A DNA stretch of 64,000 nucleotides, from contig VXQO01000001.1 in NCBI GenBank assembly GCA_009838975.1, positions 1 to 64,000 of the forward strand, written 5' to 3'. Of the stretch, positions 4,198-12,832 are shown in pieces. The notes under the pieces were generated by a model that worked only from the letters and a program-made list of their open reading frames with translations, was not told where the DNA came from and did not search any database. The DNA comes from Gemmatimonadota bacterium. GTDB taxonomy: Bacteria > Gemmatimonadota > Gemmatimonadetes > Longimicrobiales > Gaopeijiaceae. A program made the position numbers and the translations under genes. Numbering within the stretch: the first letter of the stretch is position 1; the number at the start of each line of letters is the position of its first letter.

Positions 4198-5481
4198 TTA
4201 CAGCAGGTCCACCAGCCTTTCAAGGGACTCCAGATTGTGAGCCGGCACAAGGTGGTCCACGTGGGGCAGCGCGGTCCTCATGCCCCGGGCTTCGGGACGG
4301 TACCGCGGATCGCCCATGAGGGGGTTGAGCCAGATCACCCGGCGGGCCCTGCGCCGGATCGCCAGAAGCGCCTGTTCCAGCGCCCCCGTGTCGCCCCGGT
4401 CGAGCCCGTCGCTGAAGATCAGGACCGATGTACCACCGGTCACCGTCTCCCGCAAGTAATCGTGCACGAACGCAGCCAGGCAGCGGCCGATGCGGGTGCC
4501 TCCCGACCAGTCCTCGACCTCGCGCGCGAACCGGCTGAGCGTGGCCGCGACGTTGCCCGCGGTGATCCACGGCGTGAGCCGCGTGAGCGACGTGTTGAAG
4601 GCGAACGTCTCGGTGCGGCGCGCCACCTTGCCCAGCGACAGCACGAACGTGAGCAGCAGGCGCGAGTAGGGGTCCATCGAGCCGCTGGTGTCGCAGAGGA
4701 CGACCATCCGCGGGAGTTCGACGGCGCGGGTGCGGCGGGCGAGGTCGATCAGTTCGCCGTCGCGCGCGAGTGAGCGGCGGAAGCTGCGGCGCAGGTCGAT
4801 GGCGGGGCCGGCGGGCGCTGGCACGAGGCGCCGGCTGCGGCGGGTGGCGAGTTTGCGGGCGACCTGGGCGAGGAGCCGCTCCATGGCGGCGAGTTCGTCG
4901 TCGGTGCACTGCTCGAAGGACTTGCGGCGGAGCAGGGCGCGGGGGCTGTAGCCGGGGCGTCCGGTGTCGGTGCCGGTTGTGTCGGCGTCGTCGAGCGGTC
5001 CGACGCGTCCGTGTTGCGCGATCGTGCGCGCGAGTTCGGAGAGCGGGTTGCCGTGGCCCGGCCAGGTGCGGGGGGCTCGGCGGTTGGTGGGCCGTTGGGA
5101 GTCGCGCGGGGGCGTGGGTGGCCCGCCCGGACGCCAGTGGAGCCCGAAGAGGTGGTCGAATAGGGGCCAGGCGCGGTGTTCGACCTTCAGGCTCGTCCTG
5201 AGCGCGAGCCGGACCTCGCCGCGATCGGTGAGGTCGATGTGCACGAGGGAGCCTGCGGCATCGATCTCGTCGCCGAGCGCGATGGCGACCCCGGCCTCGC
5301 GCAGCGCGGCGGCGAAGCGGGTGATGTGCGTGATGAGGTCCGTGGGGGGGATGGTGGGTGCGGTGGGTGCGGTGGGTGCGGGCAATGTGTGCGCGGTGGT
5401 GGCGGCGGGCGGCGGCGGGAGCGGCGCGGTGACGGAACGTTGACCGCGTGCGCTACCCTCCGCTCTCGGAACGGTTCGCAC
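4198..5481 (-). CDS. coxE: VWA-domain CoxE-like protein
   Basis: Predicted 427-residue von Willebrand A protein that pairs with the MoxR-type ATPase CoxD in maturation of the copper-molybdenum centre. The metal-ion-dependent adhesion motif DTSGSMD sits in the C-terminal half, followed by a GGTRIG segment and FSDGLDRGD, as expected for a VWA fold. The N-terminal ~50 residues are a Pro/Ala/Thr low-complexity stretch (PTAPTAPT). The start is uncertain: the GTG at 5481 gives the longest form, but conserved sequence begins near ITHITRFAAALREAG. Its ATPase partner is about 7.5 kb upstream, beyond the Uma2 array and frd operon. Confidence 0.9.
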   Translation of the reverse strand: MRTVPRAEGSARGQRSVTAPLPPPPAATTAHTLPAPTAPTAPTIPPTDLITHITRFAAALREAGVAIALGDEIDAAGSLVHIDLTDRGEVRLALRTSLKVEHRAWPLFDHLFGLHWRPGGPPTPPRDSQRPTNRRAPRTWPGHGNPLSELARTIAQHGRVGPLDDADTTGTDTGRPGYSPRALLRRKSFEQCTDDELAAMERLLAQVARKLATRRSRRLVPAPAGPAIDLRRSFRRSLARDGELIDLARRTRAVELPRMVVLCDTSGSMDPYSRLLLTFVLSLGKVARRTETFAFNTSLTRLTPWITAGNVAATLSRFAREVEDWSGGTRIGRCLAAFVHDYLRETVTGGTSVLIFSDGLDRGDTGALEQALLAIRRRARRVIWLNPLMGDPRYRPEARGMRTALPHVDHLVPAHNLESLERLVDLL

Positions 5482-5516
5482 ACACTAGGGCCCGGAGGTA
5501 TGATGTGTCCACCATG
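5475..5516 (+). promoter_or_regulatory. Repeated Uma2 leader module, copy 1
   Basis: TTCGCA at 5475-5480 is followed 18 bases later by TATGAT at 5499-5504, resembling a -35/-10 pair. GGAGG (5494-5498) lies just ahead of TATGAT. The ATG at 5514 is 9 bases past TATGAT, and an in-frame GTG at 5505 is 6 bases past GGAGG. The element therefore reads either as a near-leaderless promoter or as a Shine-Dalgarno for the GTG start. The run from GGAGG through ATGCAG is identical upstream of two other Uma2 genes in this window. Confidence 0.5.
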
Positions 5517-6095
5517 CAGATCACCAAACCGACCACGTGGGAAGACGTCCTGCGGATGCCCGACGACGGCAACCGCTACGAGTTCATCGGGGGGCGGCTG
5601 TACATGACGCCCGCCCCGGTGATCCGGCATCACGACGTCTCGCACAGGCTGGAGGCGGCACTGAGACGGGTTCTGGAGCGGACCGGCCACGGCAGAGTCT
5701 TCGACGCTCCGGTTCTGGTCGAATTCCCGGGCACCGGGGATCGTGTGCAACCCGATATCCTGTTCGTGTCCAGAGAGCGCCGGGGAATCGTCGGTGAGAA
5801 GCAGGTGACCGGCGCACCCGACCTTGTCGTCGAGATCCTCTCCCCATCCACCGCTCACCGCGACCGCGGCGTCAAGCTCGATCTGTACGCGCGATGCGGC
5901 GTGCGGGAATACTGGATCGTGGACCCGGAGGACGATGTGGTGGACGTTTGGCGATTCGGGGACGATCCGGGGCATGAACGCTTCGAGGGCGAGCTTCCCG
6001 TCCGGATCGGCGCCCAGCACGTGGGCGCTATCGACCTCGACGAGGTCTTCTCGCGCCACCTGGACCGTTGGGGGACCGGGAAGCCCCAGACTTGA
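5514..6095 (+). CDS. Uma2-family endonuclease, copy 1
   Basis: A 193-residue protein of the Uma2 (DUF820) family, a PD-(D/E)XK nuclease-like fold whose cellular role is mostly unknown. Visible hallmarks are RYEFIGGRLYM near the N-terminus, RVQPDILFV, the core PDLVVEILSPST, and the C-terminal GVREYWIVDP with the expected D, E and K. The ATG at 5514 is used; an in-frame GTG at 5505 with better Shine-Dalgarno spacing would add three residues. It is first of four paralogues on this strand and is probably cotranscribed with copy 2, which begins 8 bases after its stop. Its C-terminal tail WGTGKP is shared with copy 3. Confidence 0.9.
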   Translation: MQITKPTTWEDVLRMPDDGNRYEFIGGRLYMTPAPVIRHHDVSHRLEAALRRVLERTGHGRVFDAPVLVEFPGTGDRVQPDILFVSRERRGIVGEKQVTGAPDLVVEILSPSTAHRDRGVKLDLYARCGVREYWIVDPEDDVVDVWRFGDDPGHERFEGELPVRIGAQHVGAIDLDEVFSRHLDRWGTGKPQT

Positions 6096-6103
6096 GCTTC
6101 GCG

Positions 6104-6667
6104 ATGCAGATCACCACACCGACCACATGGGAAGATGTTCTTCGGATGCCGGACGACGGCAACCGCTACGAGTTCATCGGGGGACGGCTGTACATGACAC
6201 GCGCCCCCGTGATCCGGCACCAGCGCATTTCGGGACGGCTCCATTCAGCGCTAATGCTGGTTCTGGAACACCCCGGGCACGGAGAGGTGTTCTACGCACC
6301 GGTCCTGGTCGAATTCCCGGGCACGAGCGATCGTGTGCAACCCGATATCCTCTTCGTGTCCAACGAGAGGAGAGGGATCATTGCCGAGAAGGCGGTGACA
6401 GGCGCTCCCGACCTTGTCGTCGAGATCCTCTCCCCCTCCACCGCTCACCGCGACCGCGGCGTGAAGCTCGATCTGTACGCTCGATGCGGCGTGCGGGAGT
6501 ACTGGATCGTGGACCCGACTGAGGACGTGGTGGATGTCTGGCGATTCGGGGACACGCCGGGGCATGAACGCTTCTCGGACGAGCTTCCCGTCCGGGTCGG
6601 CGCTGAGCCCGTGGGCGCCATCGACCTCGACGAGGTATTCTCGCGCCACCTGGACCGTTGGGTCTGA
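6104..6667 (+). CDS. Uma2-family endonuclease, copy 2
   Basis: A 187-residue Uma2 protein closely similar to copy 1, with the same N-terminal block, VQPDILFV, PDLVVEILSPST and REYWIVDP motifs. It is the only one of the four without the repeated promoter/SD leader; it starts 8 bases after copy 1 and probably depends on that transcript. It differs from copies 1 and 3 in the SNERRGIIAEKAV segment and ends HLDRWV rather than with the GTGKP tail. In that segment it resembles copy 4, so the array may mix two sub-lineages. Confidence 0.88.
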   Translation: MQITTPTTWEDVLRMPDDGNRYEFIGGRLYMTRAPVIRHQRISGRLHSALMLVLEHPGHGEVFYAPVLVEFPGTSDRVQPDILFVSNERRGIIAEKAVTGAPDLVVEILSPSTAHRDRGVKLDLYARCGVREYWIVDPTEDVVDVWRFGDTPGHERFSDELPVRVGAEPVGAIDLDEVFSRHLDRWV

Positions 6668-6727
6668 GGCAGATGATCCGCTGATCCAGTGCTGATGACA
6701 CCATCGCATCTTCCCCGCTCAGAGCAC

Positions 6728-6769
6728 CTCGCGCACCCGGGACATGGGAGGTATGATGTGTCCACCATG
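6728..6769 (+). promoter_or_regulatory. Repeated Uma2 leader module, copy 2
   Basis: The CTCGCG box is followed by an 18-base spacer and TATGAT, with GGAGG immediately before TATGAT and the ATG 9 bases after it. The last 25 or so bases before and into the gene are identical to the leader of Uma2 copy 1, although the upstream spacer has diverged. Conservation is confined to the -35/-10/SD/start region. Confidence 0.48.
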
Positions 6770-7342
6770 CAGATCACCACACCGACCACATGGGAAGATG
6801 TCCTGCGGATGCCCGACGACGGCAACCGCTACGAGTTCATCGGGGGGCGGCTGCACATGACGCCCGCCCCCTCGATCCGGCACCATAGCGTCTCGCACAG
6901 GCTGCAATCGGGACTGAGGCAGGTTTTGGAGCGGACCAGCCACGGCCGGGTGTTCTACGCACCGGTCCTGGTCGAATTCCCGGGCACCAGCGATCGTGTG
7001 CAGCCCGATATCCTGTTCGTGTCCAGAGAGCGCCGGGGAATCGTCGGCGAGAAGCAGGTGACCGGCGCACCCGACCTGCTCGTTGAGATCCTCTCCCCCT
7101 CCACCGCCCACCGCGACCGCGGCGTCAAGCTCGATCTGTACGCGCGATGCGGCGTGCGGGAGTACTGGATCGTCGACCCGGACGAGGACGTGGTGGACGT
7201 GTGGCGATTCGGGGACACGCCGGGGCACGAGCAGTTCGCGGGCAAGTTGCCCGTCCGGATCGGAGCCCAGCGCGTGGGCGAGATCGACCTCGACGAGGTC
7301 TTCTCGCGCCACCTGGACCGTTGGGGGACCGGGAAGCCGTAG
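6767..7342 (+). CDS. Uma2-family endonuclease, copy 3
   Basis: A 191-residue Uma2 protein. It shares with copy 1 the SRERRGIVGEKQVTGAPDL segment, the GTGKP C-terminus and the complete leader, so it looks like a recent tandem duplicate of copy 1. All core nuclease-fold motifs are present (VQPDILFV, EILSPST, REYWIVDP). It is separated from copy 2 by about 100 bases and from the Fic gene downstream by another 100 bases containing one inverted ATCGTGTCA box. Confidence 0.89.
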   Translation: MQITTPTTWEDVLRMPDDGNRYEFIGGRLHMTPAPSIRHHSVSHRLQSGLRQVLERTSHGRVFYAPVLVEFPGTSDRVQPDILFVSRERRGIVGEKQVTGAPDLLVEILSPSTAHRDRGVKLDLYARCGVREYWIVDPDEDVVDVWRFGDTPGHEQFAGKLPVRIGAQRVGEIDLDEVFSRHLDRWGTGKP

Positions 7343-7381
7343 ACTTGGCCGTCCGCCCACAGCCGGATCTTTTCACCAGCC

Positions 7382-7483
7382 TGACACGATAGCTTGACGG
7401 AACCGGCGTCAACGTGCGATCTTCTCGGACATTCGTTGCACCAATGTCGGATAATCGTGTCATGTTGACCAGAGATCGTGTCA
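7382..7483. promoter_or_regulatory. Three ATCGTGTCA boxes at the Fic gene start
   Basis: ATCGTGTCA occurs as direct repeats at 7454-7462 and 7475-7483 (21 bases apart, two helical turns; the match extends to ATCGTGTCAT) and in inverted orientation at 7382-7390. The boxes surround the possible start codons of a gene whose product has an N-terminal winged helix, so they are candidate autoregulatory operator sites. The two direct copies also encode R-V-M and R-V-I, so coding constraint is an alternative for those two. Confidence 0.4.
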
Positions 7484-8769
7484 TTCTGTCGTACGTGGCG
7501 AACCACCCCGGGTGCGCCCGCTCGCAGATCCGCCGCGAAGCCGCCCCCGACGCGAGCGCGTCCACGGTATGGAGATCGCTGCGCAGACTCGTGGATGCGG
7601 GCAGGCTGGAGGTTGTGGGGGAGGGACGGGCGACCAGGTACCGGGCGGTGGGCCGGGAGGTGGTGCTTGCTCATCTGGACGTTCCTGTGAACATGCGACA
7701 GCCCATGCCCTACCGTCCGGAATTCGCCGGTGGCTACATCCCGAACGAGTCCCGCTACCTGACGGACCCCGATCGGGCGGAACTGAGGAAAGCGGGCACT
7801 CCGGCCCCGGATCCCTTTCTGGCCACTCAGGGAGTGACCTTCGCTCGGCGAGTGCTCGAAGAACTCGAGATCGACATGTCGTGGGCATCGTCGCGGCTGG
7901 AGGGCAACAGCTACGACCTTCTGGAGACGGATCGGCTGATCCGATACGCCCGTGAATCCCCGGGCAAGCCGGGACGTGACGCCACGATGATTCTCAACCA
8001 CAGGAACGCGATTCGGTATGTCGTGGAAAACCTCGACGATATCGAGATCGGGTGGCCGGACCTGCGCAACATACACGCGCTTCTGTCGCACGGGTTGATT
8101 CCGGATCCCACGCTCCGCGGAGGCCTGCGGAGGCTGCCGGTGGCGATCGGCAAATCCGCCTATACGCCTCTCGAGGATCGCTTCACGCTTCAGGAAGAGT
8201 TCGATGCGCTCGTGTCCAGGGCAGAGCGGATCACCGACCCGTTCGAACAGTCGTTCTTCCTCCTCGTCCACATTCCCTACCTGCAACCGTTCGCGGACGT
8301 GAACAAGCGCACATCGCGGATCGCCGCGCTCATTCCCCTGCTGAAGGCCGACCTGGCTCCGATGTCGTTCTTTGGCATCAACGACCGCGAGTACATTCGG
8401 GGACTGATCGGCGTGTACGAGCTCAATGACGTATCGCTCATGCGCGAAGCGTTCGTCAACGGCTACATCGCGACGGCGCAACGGTACCGGTACCTGCGAC
8501 CTAAAGCGATCAATCCAGCAAAGGGAGACCTGGAGTACCGCTTCTTCACGAGCCGTGCGATGCAACGCTGCGTCCTCAAGTGGCGTGCATTCGAACCGAC
8601 GCGAGTCCGTCGCATGATAGAGCGGGCAAACATCCCTCTGGAGGACCGCGATCACCTGTTGGAACACGTGGGACTGTGCTTTCGTGGACTCACCCCCGGC
8701 AACGCGATTCTCTACGGACTCAAGCCGGACGCGCTGGAGGGGTTGGAAGGCATTGCCGGCGATGAATGA
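7444..8769 (+). CDS. Winged-helix/Fic-domain protein with Gln at the catalytic His position
   Basis: A 441-residue protein. Residues ~7-75 form a winged-helix HTH of MarR/ArsR style. A Fic domain follows, with an N-terminal inhibitory motif SSRLEGN (Ser149, Glu153, Gly154) that matches the class II [S/T]xxxE[G/N] rule. The Fic loop reads LQPFADVNKRTSR: canonical HPFxDGNGRxxR has His where this protein has Gln281, while Asn287 and the Arg residues are kept. Loss of the catalytic base suggests altered or absent AMP transfer; from memory some annotated Fic relatives also have Gln here. The start is uncertain (GTG 7414, ATG 7444 or ATG 7462; no clear ribosome site). The gene sits between Uma2 copies 3 and 4 and could regulate itself through the nearby boxes. 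Confidence 0.85.
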   Translation: MSDNRVMLTRDRVILSYVANHPGCARSQIRREAAPDASASTVWRSLRRLVDAGRLEVVGEGRATRYRAVGREVVLAHLDVPVNMRQPMPYRPEFAGGYIPNESRYLTDPDRAELRKAGTPAPDPFLATQGVTFARRVLEELEIDMSWASSRLEGNSYDLLETDRLIRYARESPGKPGRDATMILNHRNAIRYVVENLDDIEIGWPDLRNIHALLSHGLIPDPTLRGGLRRLPVAIGKSAYTPLEDRFTLQEEFDALVSRAERITDPFEQSFFLLVHIPYLQPFADVNKRTSRIAALIPLLKADLAPMSFFGINDREYIRGLIGVYELNDVSLMREAFVNGYIATAQRYRYLRPKAINPAKGDLEYRFFTSRAMQRCVLKWRAFEPTRVRRMIERANIPLEDRDHLLEHVGLCFRGLTPGNAILYGLKPDALEGLEGIAGDE

Positions 8770-8832
8770 ACGCCCTGACGAACCGCTGACTGCACCTTCG
8801 TACACTTCCCGCTCGCACGGATTCGCGCACCC

Positions 8833-8863
8833 GGGACCGGGGAGGTATGATGTGTCCACCATG
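8833..8863 (+). promoter_or_regulatory. Repeated Uma2 leader module, copy 3
   Basis: TTCGCG lies just upstream, then CACCCGGGACCGGGGAGG, TATGAT and, 9 bases later, the ATG of Uma2 copy 4. Spacing is identical to the other two modules, and the GGAGG-to-ATGCAG run is the same sequence. The Fic gene stop is at 8769, so the module lies wholly in a 91-bp intergenic gap. Confidence 0.48.
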
Positions 8864-9433
8864 CAGACGACCGCACCAACCACGTGGGAAGATGTCCTGC
8901 GCATGCCGGACGACGGCAATCGCTACGAGTTCATCGAGGGGCGGCTGTACATGACGCCCGCGCCCGTGCTCCGCCACCAACGCATTTCGAAACGTCTCGA
9001 AATGGCCCTGATGTCGATTCTGGAGGACGCCGGACACGGAGAGTTGTTCCGTGCTCCATGCCTGGTCGAGTTCCCGGGCACCGGCGACCGCGTGCAACCC
9101 GACATCCTGTTCGTGTCCAACGAGCGACGGGGGATTATCGGGGAGAAATCCGTGCAGGGTCCCCCGGATCTCGTCGTCGAGATCCTCTCCCCTTCCACTG
9201 CCCACCGGGACCGCGGCGTAAAGCTCGATCTCTATGCGCGGTGCGGCGTGCGGGAGTACTGGATCGTGGACCCGGAAGAGGACGTGGTGGACGTCTGGCG
9301 GTTCGGACGCACCCGGGGGCGCGAACGCTTCACGGGCGAGCTCCCCGTCCGGCTGGGCAACGAGCGGATGGGTGTGATCAACCTTGCCGAGGTCTTCTCG
9401 CGCCACCTGGATGTATGGGAAGAGTCGGGATGA
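8861..9433 (+). CDS. Uma2-family endonuclease, copy 4
   Basis: A 190-residue Uma2 protein and the most diverged of the four, for example QGPPDL in place of TGAPDL and RTRGRERFTGEL near the C-terminus. It retains RVQPDILFV, VVEILSPST and REYWIVDP. It carries its own copy of the leader module and is transcribed independently of the first three, since the Fic gene intervenes. The stop at 9431-9433 faces the frd operon end, with about 50 bases between them. Confidence 0.88.
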   Translation: MQTTAPTTWEDVLRMPDDGNRYEFIEGRLYMTPAPVLRHQRISKRLEMALMSILEDAGHGELFRAPCLVEFPGTGDRVQPDILFVSNERRGIIGEKSVQGPPDLVVEILSPSTAHRDRGVKLDLYARCGVREYWIVDPEEDVVDVWRFGRTRGRERFTGELPVRLGNERMGVINLAEVFSRHLDVWEESG

Positions 9434-9435
9434 GG

Positions 9436-9488
9436 TAGCGGTCCGCACGCGCGGAAGGGCGCGGCGGCTTGCTCGGCTGCTACCGCTA
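9436..9488. terminator. Possible bidirectional terminator between Uma2 copy 4 and frdD
   Basis: TAGCGGT (9436-9442) and ACCGCTA (9482-9488) are complementary arms around a GC-rich interior that can itself fold. It sits between converging genes, and the second arm overlaps the frdD stop. There is no T-run, so this is weak. Confidence 0.25.
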
Positions 9489-9863
9489 AATCCCCCAGAG
9501 CACCAGCGCCAGCCACACGGTCCCCGCCAGCGCGCCGCCGTAGCAGGGGAGCTTGAGGAAGCCGGCCAGGCGCCGCATTCCCACGTCCATGAGGGTGTGG
9601 CGGATTCGATGTGCGCAGTGGAAGAGGGAGAGCGTGATCACGCCCAGCAGCACCAGCTTCACCGGCCACCAGCCTGCGAGGGCGGCGAGGCGTTGGGCGC
9701 CCTCGGCCGCCGCGGCGGGGTCGCCGCTCGGGAGGAGGAAGCCAGTGGCCAGGATGAAGGCCGGGACGAAGATCGCCGCCATCACTCCGCCCGCCGAGAA
9801 GAGGGCCCACCAGAAGGCCTCGCCGGAAGGCCGGGTGGGGCGGCCGCTCTTTCCTCTGCTCAC
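9486..9863 (-). CDS. frdD: Quinol:fumarate reductase membrane anchor subunit D
   Basis: A 125-residue integral membrane subunit that, with FrdC, anchors the FrdAB catalytic dimer and forms the quinone site. The N-terminus (RPSGEAFWWALFSAGG) and the segment LFHCAHRIRHTLMDVG match the E. coli FrdD family. Three hydrophobic helices can be seen: AGGVMAAIFVPAFILATGFLL, LVLLGVITLSLFHC and GGALAGTVWLALVLWG. The GTG at 9863 was chosen because it overlaps the frdC stop as GTGA; no ATG is available in this frame close to the conserved start. Confidence 0.88.
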   Translation of the reverse strand: MSRGKSGRPTRPSGEAFWWALFSAGGVMAAIFVPAFILATGFLLPSGDPAAAAEGAQRLAALAGWWPVKLVLLGVITLSLFHCAHRIRHTLMDVGMRRLAGFLKLPCYGGALAGTVWLALVLWGI

Positions 9864-10249
9864 CGGAGCACCCCCCAGAGGATGATCGCGGTTGCGGTCA
9901 GCCAGGGGCCGTAGCCCATCACGATCTTGGCGATCGGGTCGGGCAGGCGGTCCTCGCCGATGTAGATCGGCATGGCCTGCGGGACGGCCGCGAAGAAGGT
10001 GATCGTGTGCCAGACCGTGGCTGCGAGGGCCACCGCGTGCGCCACCTTCCAGCCTGTGGTGCTCAGCGCCTGCAGCCACTCGGCCGCCGCCGCCTCGCCG
10101 ACGCCAACCTTCGCGAGAGTGACGATCAGCACGATCAGGTAGGCCGCCATGAAGAAGCTCGTCACCTCACGGATCATGAAGCGGATGTAGGCGGGGCGCT
10201 CCATGAACCACGCCCGCCGGTGGGGTCGGTGGTACTGTCCGCCGCTCAT
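9860..10249 (-). CDS. frdC: Quinol:fumarate reductase membrane anchor subunit C
   Basis: A 129-residue membrane subunit. After a basic cytoplasmic N-terminus (YHRPHRRAWF...RFMIREVTS) come three hydrophobic helices, FFMAAYLIVLIVTLA, VAHAVALAATVWHTITFFAA and WLTATAIILWGV. His residues in the second helix could contact quinone or heme. The ATG at 10249 overlaps the frdB stop (ATGA) and the gene overlaps frdD at its own stop. It resembles the four-subunit E. coli-type enzyme, not the single-anchor type. Confidence 0.88.
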   Translation of the reverse strand: MSGGQYHRPHRRAWFMERPAYIRFMIREVTSFFMAAYLIVLIVTLAKVGVGEAAAAEWLQALSTTGWKVAHAVALAATVWHTITFFAAVPQAMPIYIGEDRLPDPIAKIVMGYGPWLTATAIILWGVLR

Positions 10250-11016
10250 GCGCCCGCTCCCTTCGTTGCGCCCGCTCCCTTCGGCATCACGAAGCGCTTG
10301 AAGTACTCCTGGGCGCCCATCGCCTTGGCCTGCTGGATCGCGCCCGCCGGATCGACGTGCTTGGGGCAGACGACCGTGCATTCGCCGACGAAGGTGCAGC
10401 CCCACATGGCCTCGCTTCGCAGCATGACCTCGAGGCGCTCGGACTGGCCCTGGTCGCGCGAGTCCTTGTTGTAGCGGTGGCCGAGCGCGAGCGCCGCGGG
10501 GCCGAGGAAGTCGTCCTCGTGGCCCACCACCGGGCACGCGGAGTAGCAGAGCATGCAGTTGATGCACATCGAGTACTGCTTGTACTGCGCGAGTTCGGCG
10601 GGGGTCTGCAGGTACTCGCCCTCGGACGTGTCGTTGACATCGTCGCGGATGATGTACGGCTTCACGTCCTGCAGCTTGTCCATGAAGCCTTCCATGTCGA
10701 CAACCAGGTCGCGCTCCACGGGGAAGTTGACCAGCGGCTCCACCTTGATCGGGAACGGGTAGTAGTTCTTGAGGAAGGCGGCGCAGGTCAGCTTGGGCTC
10801 GCCGTTGACCATCATGCCGCAGCTTCCGCACACGCCCATGCGGCAGCTCCAGCGGTGGGTGACCGAGCCGTCGACGTAGTCCTTGATCCAGTTGATCGCG
10901 TCGAGGACCACCCAGTCCTCGTCGTAGGGGACCTCGTAGGACTGGAATCGCGGCTCGGAGTCGGTCTCGGGGTGGTACCGGAACAGCTCCAGCGTGATGG
11001 TCTTCGTTTCGGCCAT
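10246..11016 (-). CDS. frdB: Succinate dehydrogenase/fumarate reductase iron-sulfur subunit
   Basis: A 256-residue electron-transfer subunit. The [2Fe-2S] site is CRMGVCGSC with a later Cys in PKLTC. The [4Fe-4S] motif is CINCMLCYSACP. The [3Fe-4S] cysteines lie in WGCTFVGEC and VVCPKHVDP. The C-terminal AGATKGAGA tail is low-complexity. It lies 13 bases after frdA and overlaps frdC by four bases. The motif set suits either direction of the fumarate/succinate reaction. Confidence 0.95.
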   Translation of the reverse strand: MAETKTITLELFRYHPETDSEPRFQSYEVPYDEDWVVLDAINWIKDYVDGSVTHRWSCRMGVCGSCGMMVNGEPKLTCAAFLKNYYPFPIKVEPLVNFPVERDLVVDMEGFMDKLQDVKPYIIRDDVNDTSEGEYLQTPAELAQYKQYSMCINCMLCYSACPVVGHEDDFLGPAALALGHRYNKDSRDQGQSERLEVMLRSEAMWGCTFVGECTVVCPKHVDPAGAIQQAKAMGAQEYFKRFVMPKGAGATKGAGA

Positions 11017-11029
11017 GGCTTGTTCCCGC

Positions 11030-12832
11030 CTATTCCCGCTTGAGCCCCGAGTCGGCGCCGTAGGTGCGGGCGCCCGGAGGCCACTTGGTGATCGTCACGG
11101 GACTGTACTCGATCCTGGGCGCGCTGCCGTCCTCCCGGTGGAAGGCGAGCGAGTGCGCGAGGAAGTCGTCGTCGTTGCGCTCGGGGTGGTCGAGGCGCTG
11201 GTGCGACCCGCGCGATTCGGTCCGCTCCATGGCCGAATGGGCCATCGACTGCGCGACGTCCAGCAGCGAGGACAGCTCGAGCGCGGCCGTCAGCTCGGTA
11301 TTGAAGCTGTTGGTGTGGTCGTCGAGTGCGATGTTGGCGTAGCGCTCCCACAGCTCGGCGATCTTGTTGCAGGTCGCCTCCAGCGAGTCCGCGTTGCGGT
11401 AGATCCCGGCGCCCTCCTCCATGGAGTCGTGGAGTTCCTTGCGCAGAACCGCGATCCGTTCGCCGCCGGACTTGGCGGGGGAGGAGAAGTACGTCCGCCT
11501 TATGCGGTCGCGCTCGTCGTCCGCCTGCGCCACCAGTCCGGACACGTCGTAGTCGGGATGGTCCATCGCAAAGCGCGCGGCGTGAGTCCCCGCCTGGCCT
11601 CCGAACACGAGCAGCTCGGTCAGCGAATTCGACCCCAGCCGGTTCGCCCCGTTGATCGACACGCAGGCGCACTCTCCGGCCGCGTAGAGCCCGGGGATGT
11701 TGGTGGCCGAGTCGCTGTCGACGTCGATCCCGCCCATCACGTAGTGGACGACCGGACGCACGGGGATCGGCTGGTACACCGGATCGATCCCGGCATAGCT
11801 GCGGGCGAGTTCGCGCACGAACGGGATCCGCTTGTCGATCTTCTTCTCGCCCAGGTGGCGCAGGTCGAGGTGGACCGCGTCGCCGTCCTTCGTCTTGATC
11901 GTGCGGCCCGCCCACATCTCCTTGATGAAGCACTGGCTGAGCTTGTCGCGCGGCCCCAGCTCCATCGTGCGCGTCTGCGGGTGGCGGGGGTCGTCCACCT
12001 CGAGCGGCTGGCCGAGGTCGTAGTCCTGCAGGTAGCGGCGGCCGTCCCTGTTGACCAGGATCCCGCCCTCGCCGCGCGACGCCTCGGTGATCAGGATGCC
12101 CGTGCCCGGCAGCCCCGTCGGGTGGTACTGGATGAACTCCATGTCCTTGAGCGCCACCCCCGCGCGGTAGGCCATCGCCATCCCGTCGCCGGTCTTGATC
12201 GCGCCGTTGGTCGTGAACGGGAACGCCTTCCCCGCCCCGCCCGTGCAGATGATCACCGACTTGCCCAGCACCGCGCGCACGGTCCCGGTCCGCAGCTCGA
12301 TCGCCGCGCATCCCCGGCACCGCCCCTCGTCGTCCAGGAGCAGCTTCGTGGCGAAGTGCTCGTCGTAGCGCACGATGTTCCCGTACTTGAGCGTCGTCTG
12401 GAAGAGCGAGTGCAGCATGTGGAACCCGGTCTTGTCGGCCGCGAACCAGGTGCGCTCGATCTTCATGCCGCCGAAGGGCCTGACCTGCACGGTCCCGTCG
12501 GGCCGCCGGCTCCACGGGCAGCCCCAGTGCTCCAGCTGGATCATCTCCTCGGGCGCGCGGTTCACGAAGTACTCGACCGCGTCCTGGTCGGCGAGCCAGT
12601 CCGCCCCGCTCACCGTGTCGTAGATGTGGTCTTCCAGACTGTCGTTGTCCTTGATCACCGCCGCGGCGCCGCCCTCGGCGGTCACCGTGTGGCTGCGCAT
12701 CGGGTAGACCTTCGACACGCAGGCGACGGAGAAGTCGGGGTTCTCCTCGGCGATCGCGATGGCGGCGCGCAGTCCGGCCCCGCCGCCTCCGATGATGACC
12801 ACGTCGTGGTGGTGCGAGGATACGTGGCTCAT
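11030..12832 (-). CDS. frdA: Fumarate reductase/succinate dehydrogenase flavoprotein subunit
   Basis: A 600-residue catalytic subunit. The FAD-binding motif [16 protein letters not shown] is at residues ~10-25 and the covalent flavin-attachment region SHTVTAEGG is near residue 47. The dicarboxylate site shows [20 protein letters not shown] and [10 protein letters not shown]. With FrdCD of E. coli type the complex is most likely a quinol:fumarate reductase, though sequence alone does not fix direction. First gene of frdABCD; a 150-bp upstream gap holds a 16-bp direct repeat. Confidence 0.95.

What the first reader, a model, noticed from the sequence alone, without database searches (positions are those of the whole stretch)
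5475..8863. Shared leader with TATGAT and GGAGG at three of four Uma2 genes
Exact conservation is confined to the last ~25 bases (GGAGG to ATGCAG), with a -35-like box at constant 18-base spacing, while spacers vary. Selection or gene conversion keeps this module. Copy 2 lacks it because it follows copy 1 by 8 bases.
Basis: seen in the sequence. Interest (0 to 1): 0.6.

Follow-up and report, generated by a model that had tools for sequence, protein, structure and literature searches.

The report
Shared promoter abutting Uma2 start codons
Three of four neighbouring copies of a putative nuclease gene (Uma2) carry the same short control sequence against their start codon; related bacteria keep it at nearly every copy, and it looks like a promoter whose RNA starts almost exactly at the gene, which is a new instance of a known arrangement rather than a new mechanism.

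Summary
GGAGGTATGATGTGTCCACCATGCAG is identical before Uma2 copies 1, 3 and 4 (0 expected by chance), with a -35-like box exactly 18 bases upstream of TATGAT each time. Copy 2 starts 8 bases after copy 1 stops and lacks it. In this Gemmatimonadota genome the core occurs five times, all at Uma2 (one a pseudogene). The genus yields 35 sites, 34 at Uma2. On the Uma2 tree the 20 bases before ATG change 0.5 times per site, against 4.3 at fourfold sites, so selection, not recent copying, holds them. Two conserved blocks flank a fast-changing spacer of fixed length, as in a -35/-10 promoter. Coding, RNA-structure and general-leader explanations fail. TATGAT ends 9 bases before ATG, placing the inferred RNA start 0-3 bases from the gene: a near-leaderless mRNA. 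GGAGG is therefore probably not a ribosome site; it also lies outside this genome's Shine-Dalgarno range. Two Uma2 copies without the module both directly follow another gene. Why GGAGG, the 9-base linker and an early coding stretch are also constrained is unexplained; a shared operator is possible. Transcription was not measured.

The parts
5475..5485 (+). -35-like block of copy 1 (TTCGCACACAC)
   Evidence: 18 bases upstream of TATGAT; block -39..-29 conserved in genus; only Uma2 leader here that passes the sigma-70 consensus scan
5494..5513 (+). core module of copy 1: GGAGG + TATGAT (-10, 5499-5504) + GTGTCCACC
5514..6095 (+). Uma2 copy 1 (193 aa)
   Evidence: PF05685 E 7.6e-37
6104..6667 (+). 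Uma2 copy 2, no module, 8 bases behind copy 1
6728..6738 (+). -35-like block of copy 3 (CTCGCGCACCC)
6747..6766 (+). core module of copy 3 (TATGAT 6752-6757)
6767..7342 (+). Uma2 copy 3
   Evidence: PF05685
7450..7455 (+). GATAAT, possible -10 box 6 bases before the Fic gene start (second promoter-like hit of the region)
   Evidence: only partly kept in relatives
7462..8769 (+). Fic-domain gene between copies 3 and 4; found with Uma2 at this locus in relatives
   Evidence: PF02661 E 7.7e-08
8822..8832 (+). -35-like block of copy 4 (TTCGCGCACCC)
8841..8860 (+). core module of copy 4 (TATGAT 8846-8851)
8861..9433 (+). Uma2 copy 4
   Evidence: PF05685 E 1.1e-35

Best explanation
The module is a dedicated, strongly conserved promoter of Uma2 genes in one Gemmatimonadota genus. 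Shown: two blocks (TTCGCRCACCC and GGAGGTATGATGTGTCCACC) at fixed distance under purifying selection, placed before Uma2 start codons and absent where Uma2 directly follows another gene. Inferred: RNA polymerase with a sigma-70-type factor uses TATGAT as -10 and TTCGCR as a weak -35. Transcription would start about 7 bases after TATGAT, at the A of ACC-ATG or at the ATG itself, giving an mRNA with a 0-3 base leader that the ribosome reads from the 5' AUG. GGAGG would then be promoter DNA, not a ribosome site. Copy 2 would be read from the transcript of copy 1.
For: Core diversity 0.046 against 0.386 at fourfold sites in 28 genes; 0.5 against 4.26 parsimony changes per site, P 8e-8. -10 hexamer 0.17 changes per site, spacer -28..-21 4.6, yet no length change. 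Same-locus genes with third-position identity as low as 0.48 keep core identity 0.85-1.00. The core pattern occurs 5 times in the 4.5 Mb genome, all at Uma2; the two genomes of the genus without the module also have no Uma2. The two module-less Uma2 copies examined, in G000 and G009, follow a gene directly. In 1.27 Mb of this genome SD-like tetramers peak at -14 to -9 and are at background near -20, where Uma2's GGAGG begins. TANNNT at -16..-11 is modestly over-represented before ATG starts, 16 against 6.2, P 7e-4; none of the 16 is a Uma2 gene, so a small leaderless class is plausible. One diverged relative has TATATT at the same place with GGAGG gone (L082). TANNNT about 12 bp upstream of starts marks leaderless genes in bacteria (PMC3160421); -10 motifs next to ORFs drive leaderless mRNAs in Deinococcus (PMC12340547).
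Against: No transcription data. TTCGCA and TTCGCG match TTGACA at only 4 and 3 of 6 positions. GGAG and the linker GTGTCCACC are more conserved than a plain promoter needs. The 9-base gap is longer than the 6-7 bp typical in Deinococcus (PMC12340547). The leaderless class in this genome is small. Gene starts came from a simple home-made caller. L082, the GGAGG-less case, is a short gene fragment.
Confidence: 0.68

Rival explanations
1. The module is chiefly an operator: a repressor, perhaps Uma2 itself or a partner, binds GGAGGTATGATGTGTCCACC over the -10/start region and controls all Uma2 copies together.
For: An ungapped stretch of about 20 bases is almost invariant, including linker bases a promoter alone would not need. 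It is restricted to Uma2.
Against: No clear inverted repeat seen; no regulator identified. Compatible with the best explanation rather than exclusive.
Confidence: 0.15
2. Ordinary leadered gene: transcription starts upstream (for example near the semi-conserved TGACGGAACC...TACCCT region at about -86 to -57) and GGAGG is a Shine-Dalgarno site with unusually long spacing.
For: GGAG is invariant in 28 genes. An upstream semi-conserved segment exists in most relatives. This genome does use SD sites.
Against: GGAGG begins at -20, outside the SD range of this genome. The upstream segment is absent or scrambled in L039 and L041, which keep the core. It would not explain the conserved -10-like hexamer and -35-like block at fixed distance.
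Confidence: 0.1
3. The leader is translated: the real start lies upstream and the protein begins ...FAHPxxGRYDVSTMQ; or GGAGG serves an overlapping +1-frame ORF starting at ATGATG.
For: The frame upstream of ATG is open for at least 27 codons at all 35 sites. GGAGG is placed close to the out-of-frame ATGATG, whose frame is open for about 35 codons in most copies.
Against: No third-position excess: core 0.113/0.020/0.058 and -39..-22 0.252/0.174/0.261 for codon positions 1/2/3, against 0.158/0.115/0.342 in the gene. TAT and GAT are kept in a 68% GC window. Single- and two-base indels break the frame further upstream. The +1 ORF loses its usual end in L063, L067 and L044.
Confidence: 0.04
4. The identity is a by-product of recent duplication or gene conversion, with no function.
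For: Copies do duplicate with their leader: two 99.3% identical 1.2 kb units in G002.
Against: The window copies differ at roughly 10-20% of coding bases and more upstream, and same-locus genes of different species keep the core.
Confidence: 0.03

Closest known systems
Leaderless (TANNNT / '-10 motif adjacent to ORF') promoters of Actinobacteria and Deinococcus-Thermus (PMC3160421, PMC12340547)
   Same: -10-like hexamer just before the start codon, no usable SD, expected 0-3 base leader
   Different: Here in Gemmatimonadota; gap of 9 rather than 6-7 bases; the flanking 14 bases are also conserved; confined to one gene family and only a minor class in this genome
Canonical sigma-70 promoter with Shine-Dalgarno leader
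   Same: -35/-10-like blocks with 18-base spacing; GGAGG present
   Different: GGAGG lies upstream of the -10 box, not between transcription start and ATG
Uma2 family (PF05685, COG4636; predicted PD-(D/E)XK endonuclease, proposed solo toxin, PMC2701414)
   Same: All four genes match; solved relatives exist (9y1l, 6okh, 3ot2, 1wdj)
   Different: I found no described shared leader for this family in the papers searched

Membership tests
Leaderless / -10-adjacent promoter | TANNNT-like hexamer roughly 6-10 bases before the start codon | tested here: met
   TATGAT at -15..-10 in the three window copies; of 35 sites only L076 (TACGAT) and L082 (TATATT) vary, and both still fit TANNNT
Leaderless / -10-adjacent promoter | no Shine-Dalgarno site at usable distance | tested here: met
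   GGAGG begins at -20; the genome's SD-like tetramers peak at -14..-9 and are at background near -20
Leaderless / -10-adjacent promoter | transcription starts at or within a few bases of the start codon | not testable with these tools
   needs 5' RACE or dRNA-seq
Sigma-70 promoter | -35 and -10 blocks at 16-18 base spacing | tested here: met
   constant 18 bases, spacer variable in sequence
Sigma-70 promoter | -35 close to TTGACA | tested here: inconclusive
   TTCGCA matches 4 of 6, TTCGCG 3, CTCGCG 2; only copy 1 passes the scan
Uma2 (PF05685) | profile match above curated cut-off | tested here: met
   119-127 bits against a cut-off of 27 for the four copies

The most novel reading that the evidence does not exclude
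A Uma2-specific control system: one recognition sequence at the -10/start region, shared by all dispersed Uma2 copies of a genus and bound by a common regulator or by Uma2 itself, together with a second constrained DNA stretch in the early coding region, so that gene copies are jointly silenced or recognised.
Probability: 0.15. Interest if true: 0.55.

Novelty: new member of a known kind. Interest (0 to 1): 0.35.

Why it matters
Uma2 proteins are a large, expanding family of unproven function. A conserved, family-specific promoter gives a concrete handle on their regulation. It also suggests a leaderless class in Gemmatimonadota; one full-text search for 'leaderless' plus 'Gemmatimona' returned five papers, none about it by title. 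It warns that a GGAGG near a start codon need not be a ribosome site.

Tried and rejected
General leader module: rejected, the core is found only at Uma2 in the genome. Translated leader: rejected by codon-position diversity and frameshifting indels. RNA structure over -20..+130: consensus fold no better than shuffled columns, no compensatory changes; single folds unremarkable; no Rfam match. Module in other families of the order: none within 3 mismatches; Uma2 genes there have unrelated leaders.

Full report
What is there. The window lies on contig C99 of a 4.5 Mb genome; the nearest named relatives are Gemmatimonadota MAGs. I did not fix the genus name. Four Uma2 genes (PF05685) lie at 5514-6095, 6104-6667, 6767-7342 and 8861-9433, with a Fic-domain gene at 7462-8769. 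GGAGGTATGATGTGTCCACCATGCAG is exact before copies 1, 3 and 4, with none expected by chance. The -35-like hexamers lie 18 bases from TATGAT in each case. Copy 2 begins 8 bases after copy 1 and has no module.

How specific it is. TATGATNNNNNCACCATG occurs five times in the whole genome: three times here, at one Uma2 gene on C95 and at one Uma2 pseudogene on C150. Among 21 genomes, the module (up to 3 mismatches) occurs in 11 of the 13 of the same genus and in none of the 8 of other families of the order. The two genus members without it also have no Uma2 match. Pooling all fetched loci gives 35 distinct sites. Thirty-four precede Uma2 reading frames, some of them broken or cut. One precedes a 2OG-Fe(II) oxygenase gene directly behind an Uma2 remnant, a possible promoter capture.

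Selection. In 28 intact genes the mean pairwise diversity of -20..-1 is 0.046, against 0.386 at fourfold sites and about 0.69 beyond -90. The profile shows two conserved blocks, -39..-29 and -20..-1, and a variable spacer at -28..-21. On the Uma2 gene tree the mean number of changes per site is 0.17 in TATGAT, 0.4 in GGAGG, 0.78 in the linker, 2.0 in -39..-29, 4.6 in the spacer and 4.26 at fourfold sites; core against fourfold sites P = 8e-8. The interval between the SDH operon and a vWA-domain gene holds Uma2 in several species. Seven genes taken as residents of this locus keep core identity 0.85-1.00 while third positions are 0.48-0.81 identical; for L083 the placement was not checked by synteny. 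Recent copying or conversion inside one genome cannot produce this.

What it is not. The frame upstream of ATG is open, and FAHPxxGRYDVSTMQ looks conserved, so I tested whether it is coding. Codon positions 1/2/3 differ by 0.113/0.020/0.058 in the core and 0.252/0.174/0.261 in -39..-22, against 0.158/0.115/0.342 in the gene, and indels break the frame further upstream. It does not behave as coding sequence. A consensus RNA fold of the region is no better than shuffled columns.

How it probably works. Fixed spacing with a free spacer is the anatomy of a -35/-10 promoter. TATGAT ends 9 bases before ATG, so a start about 7 bases downstream falls at the A of ACCATG or at ATG: a leader of 0-3 bases. 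This step is inference. In 1.27 Mb of this genome, SD-like tetramers peak at -14..-9 and are at background at -20, so the GGAGG of Uma2 is not where this organism places ribosome sites. TANNNT at -16..-11 is modestly enriched before ATG starts, 16 against 6.2 (P 7e-4; none of the 16 is Uma2), and several candidate starts in that list have TTGAC about 17 bases upstream. Leaderless genes marked by TANNNT near the start are known in many bacteria (PMC3160421), and the -10-adjacent arrangement is common in Deinococcus-Thermus (PMC12340547). Where Uma2 directly follows another gene the module is missing: copy 2 here, and in G009 a copy whose start overlaps the stop of a Fic gene.

What stays open. 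GGAG and the linker are more conserved than a promoter alone requires; an operator is possible. Codons about 12-33 (alignment columns 15-36) have reduced synonymous diversity, the lowest window of the gene (permutation P 0.025), not explained by RNA structure. Uma2 function is unproven; a solo toxin role was proposed (PMC2701414).

Verdict. The better reading is a near-leaderless promoter dedicated to Uma2, a new example of a known arrangement. The transcription start remains to be measured.

Noticed in passing
window 5547-5612 (Uma2 codons about 12-33) and the same codons in relatives: This stretch shows the lowest synonymous diversity of the gene; RNA structure does not explain it.
   Followed up: partly
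L030:1500-3023 (G002:C124): The module precedes a 2OG-Fe(II) oxygenase gene directly behind an Uma2 remnant; a possible promoter capture.
   Followed up: partly
window 7450-7464: The Fic gene has GATAAT 6 bases before its ATG and no SD, so it may also be leaderless; relatives keep AATCGTGTCATG or similar.
   Followed up: partly
L031 (G000:C150), L030, L054, L082: Several Uma2 genes of the genus are shortened or broken by internal deletions or frameshifts while the leader is largely kept.
   Followed up: no
window 4198-5481 and 9486-12832; L198-L203: The interval between the SDH operon and a vWA-domain gene is a variable spot in the genus: Uma2 and Fic come and go.
   Followed up: partly
L205:4888-8690: Two 99.3% identical 1.2 kb units with Uma2 and leader, a recent duplication.
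   Followed up: partly
about -86 to -57 upstream of Uma2 starts in relatives: A second semi-conserved segment TGACGGAACC...GCACC...TACCCT of unknown role.
   Followed up: partly
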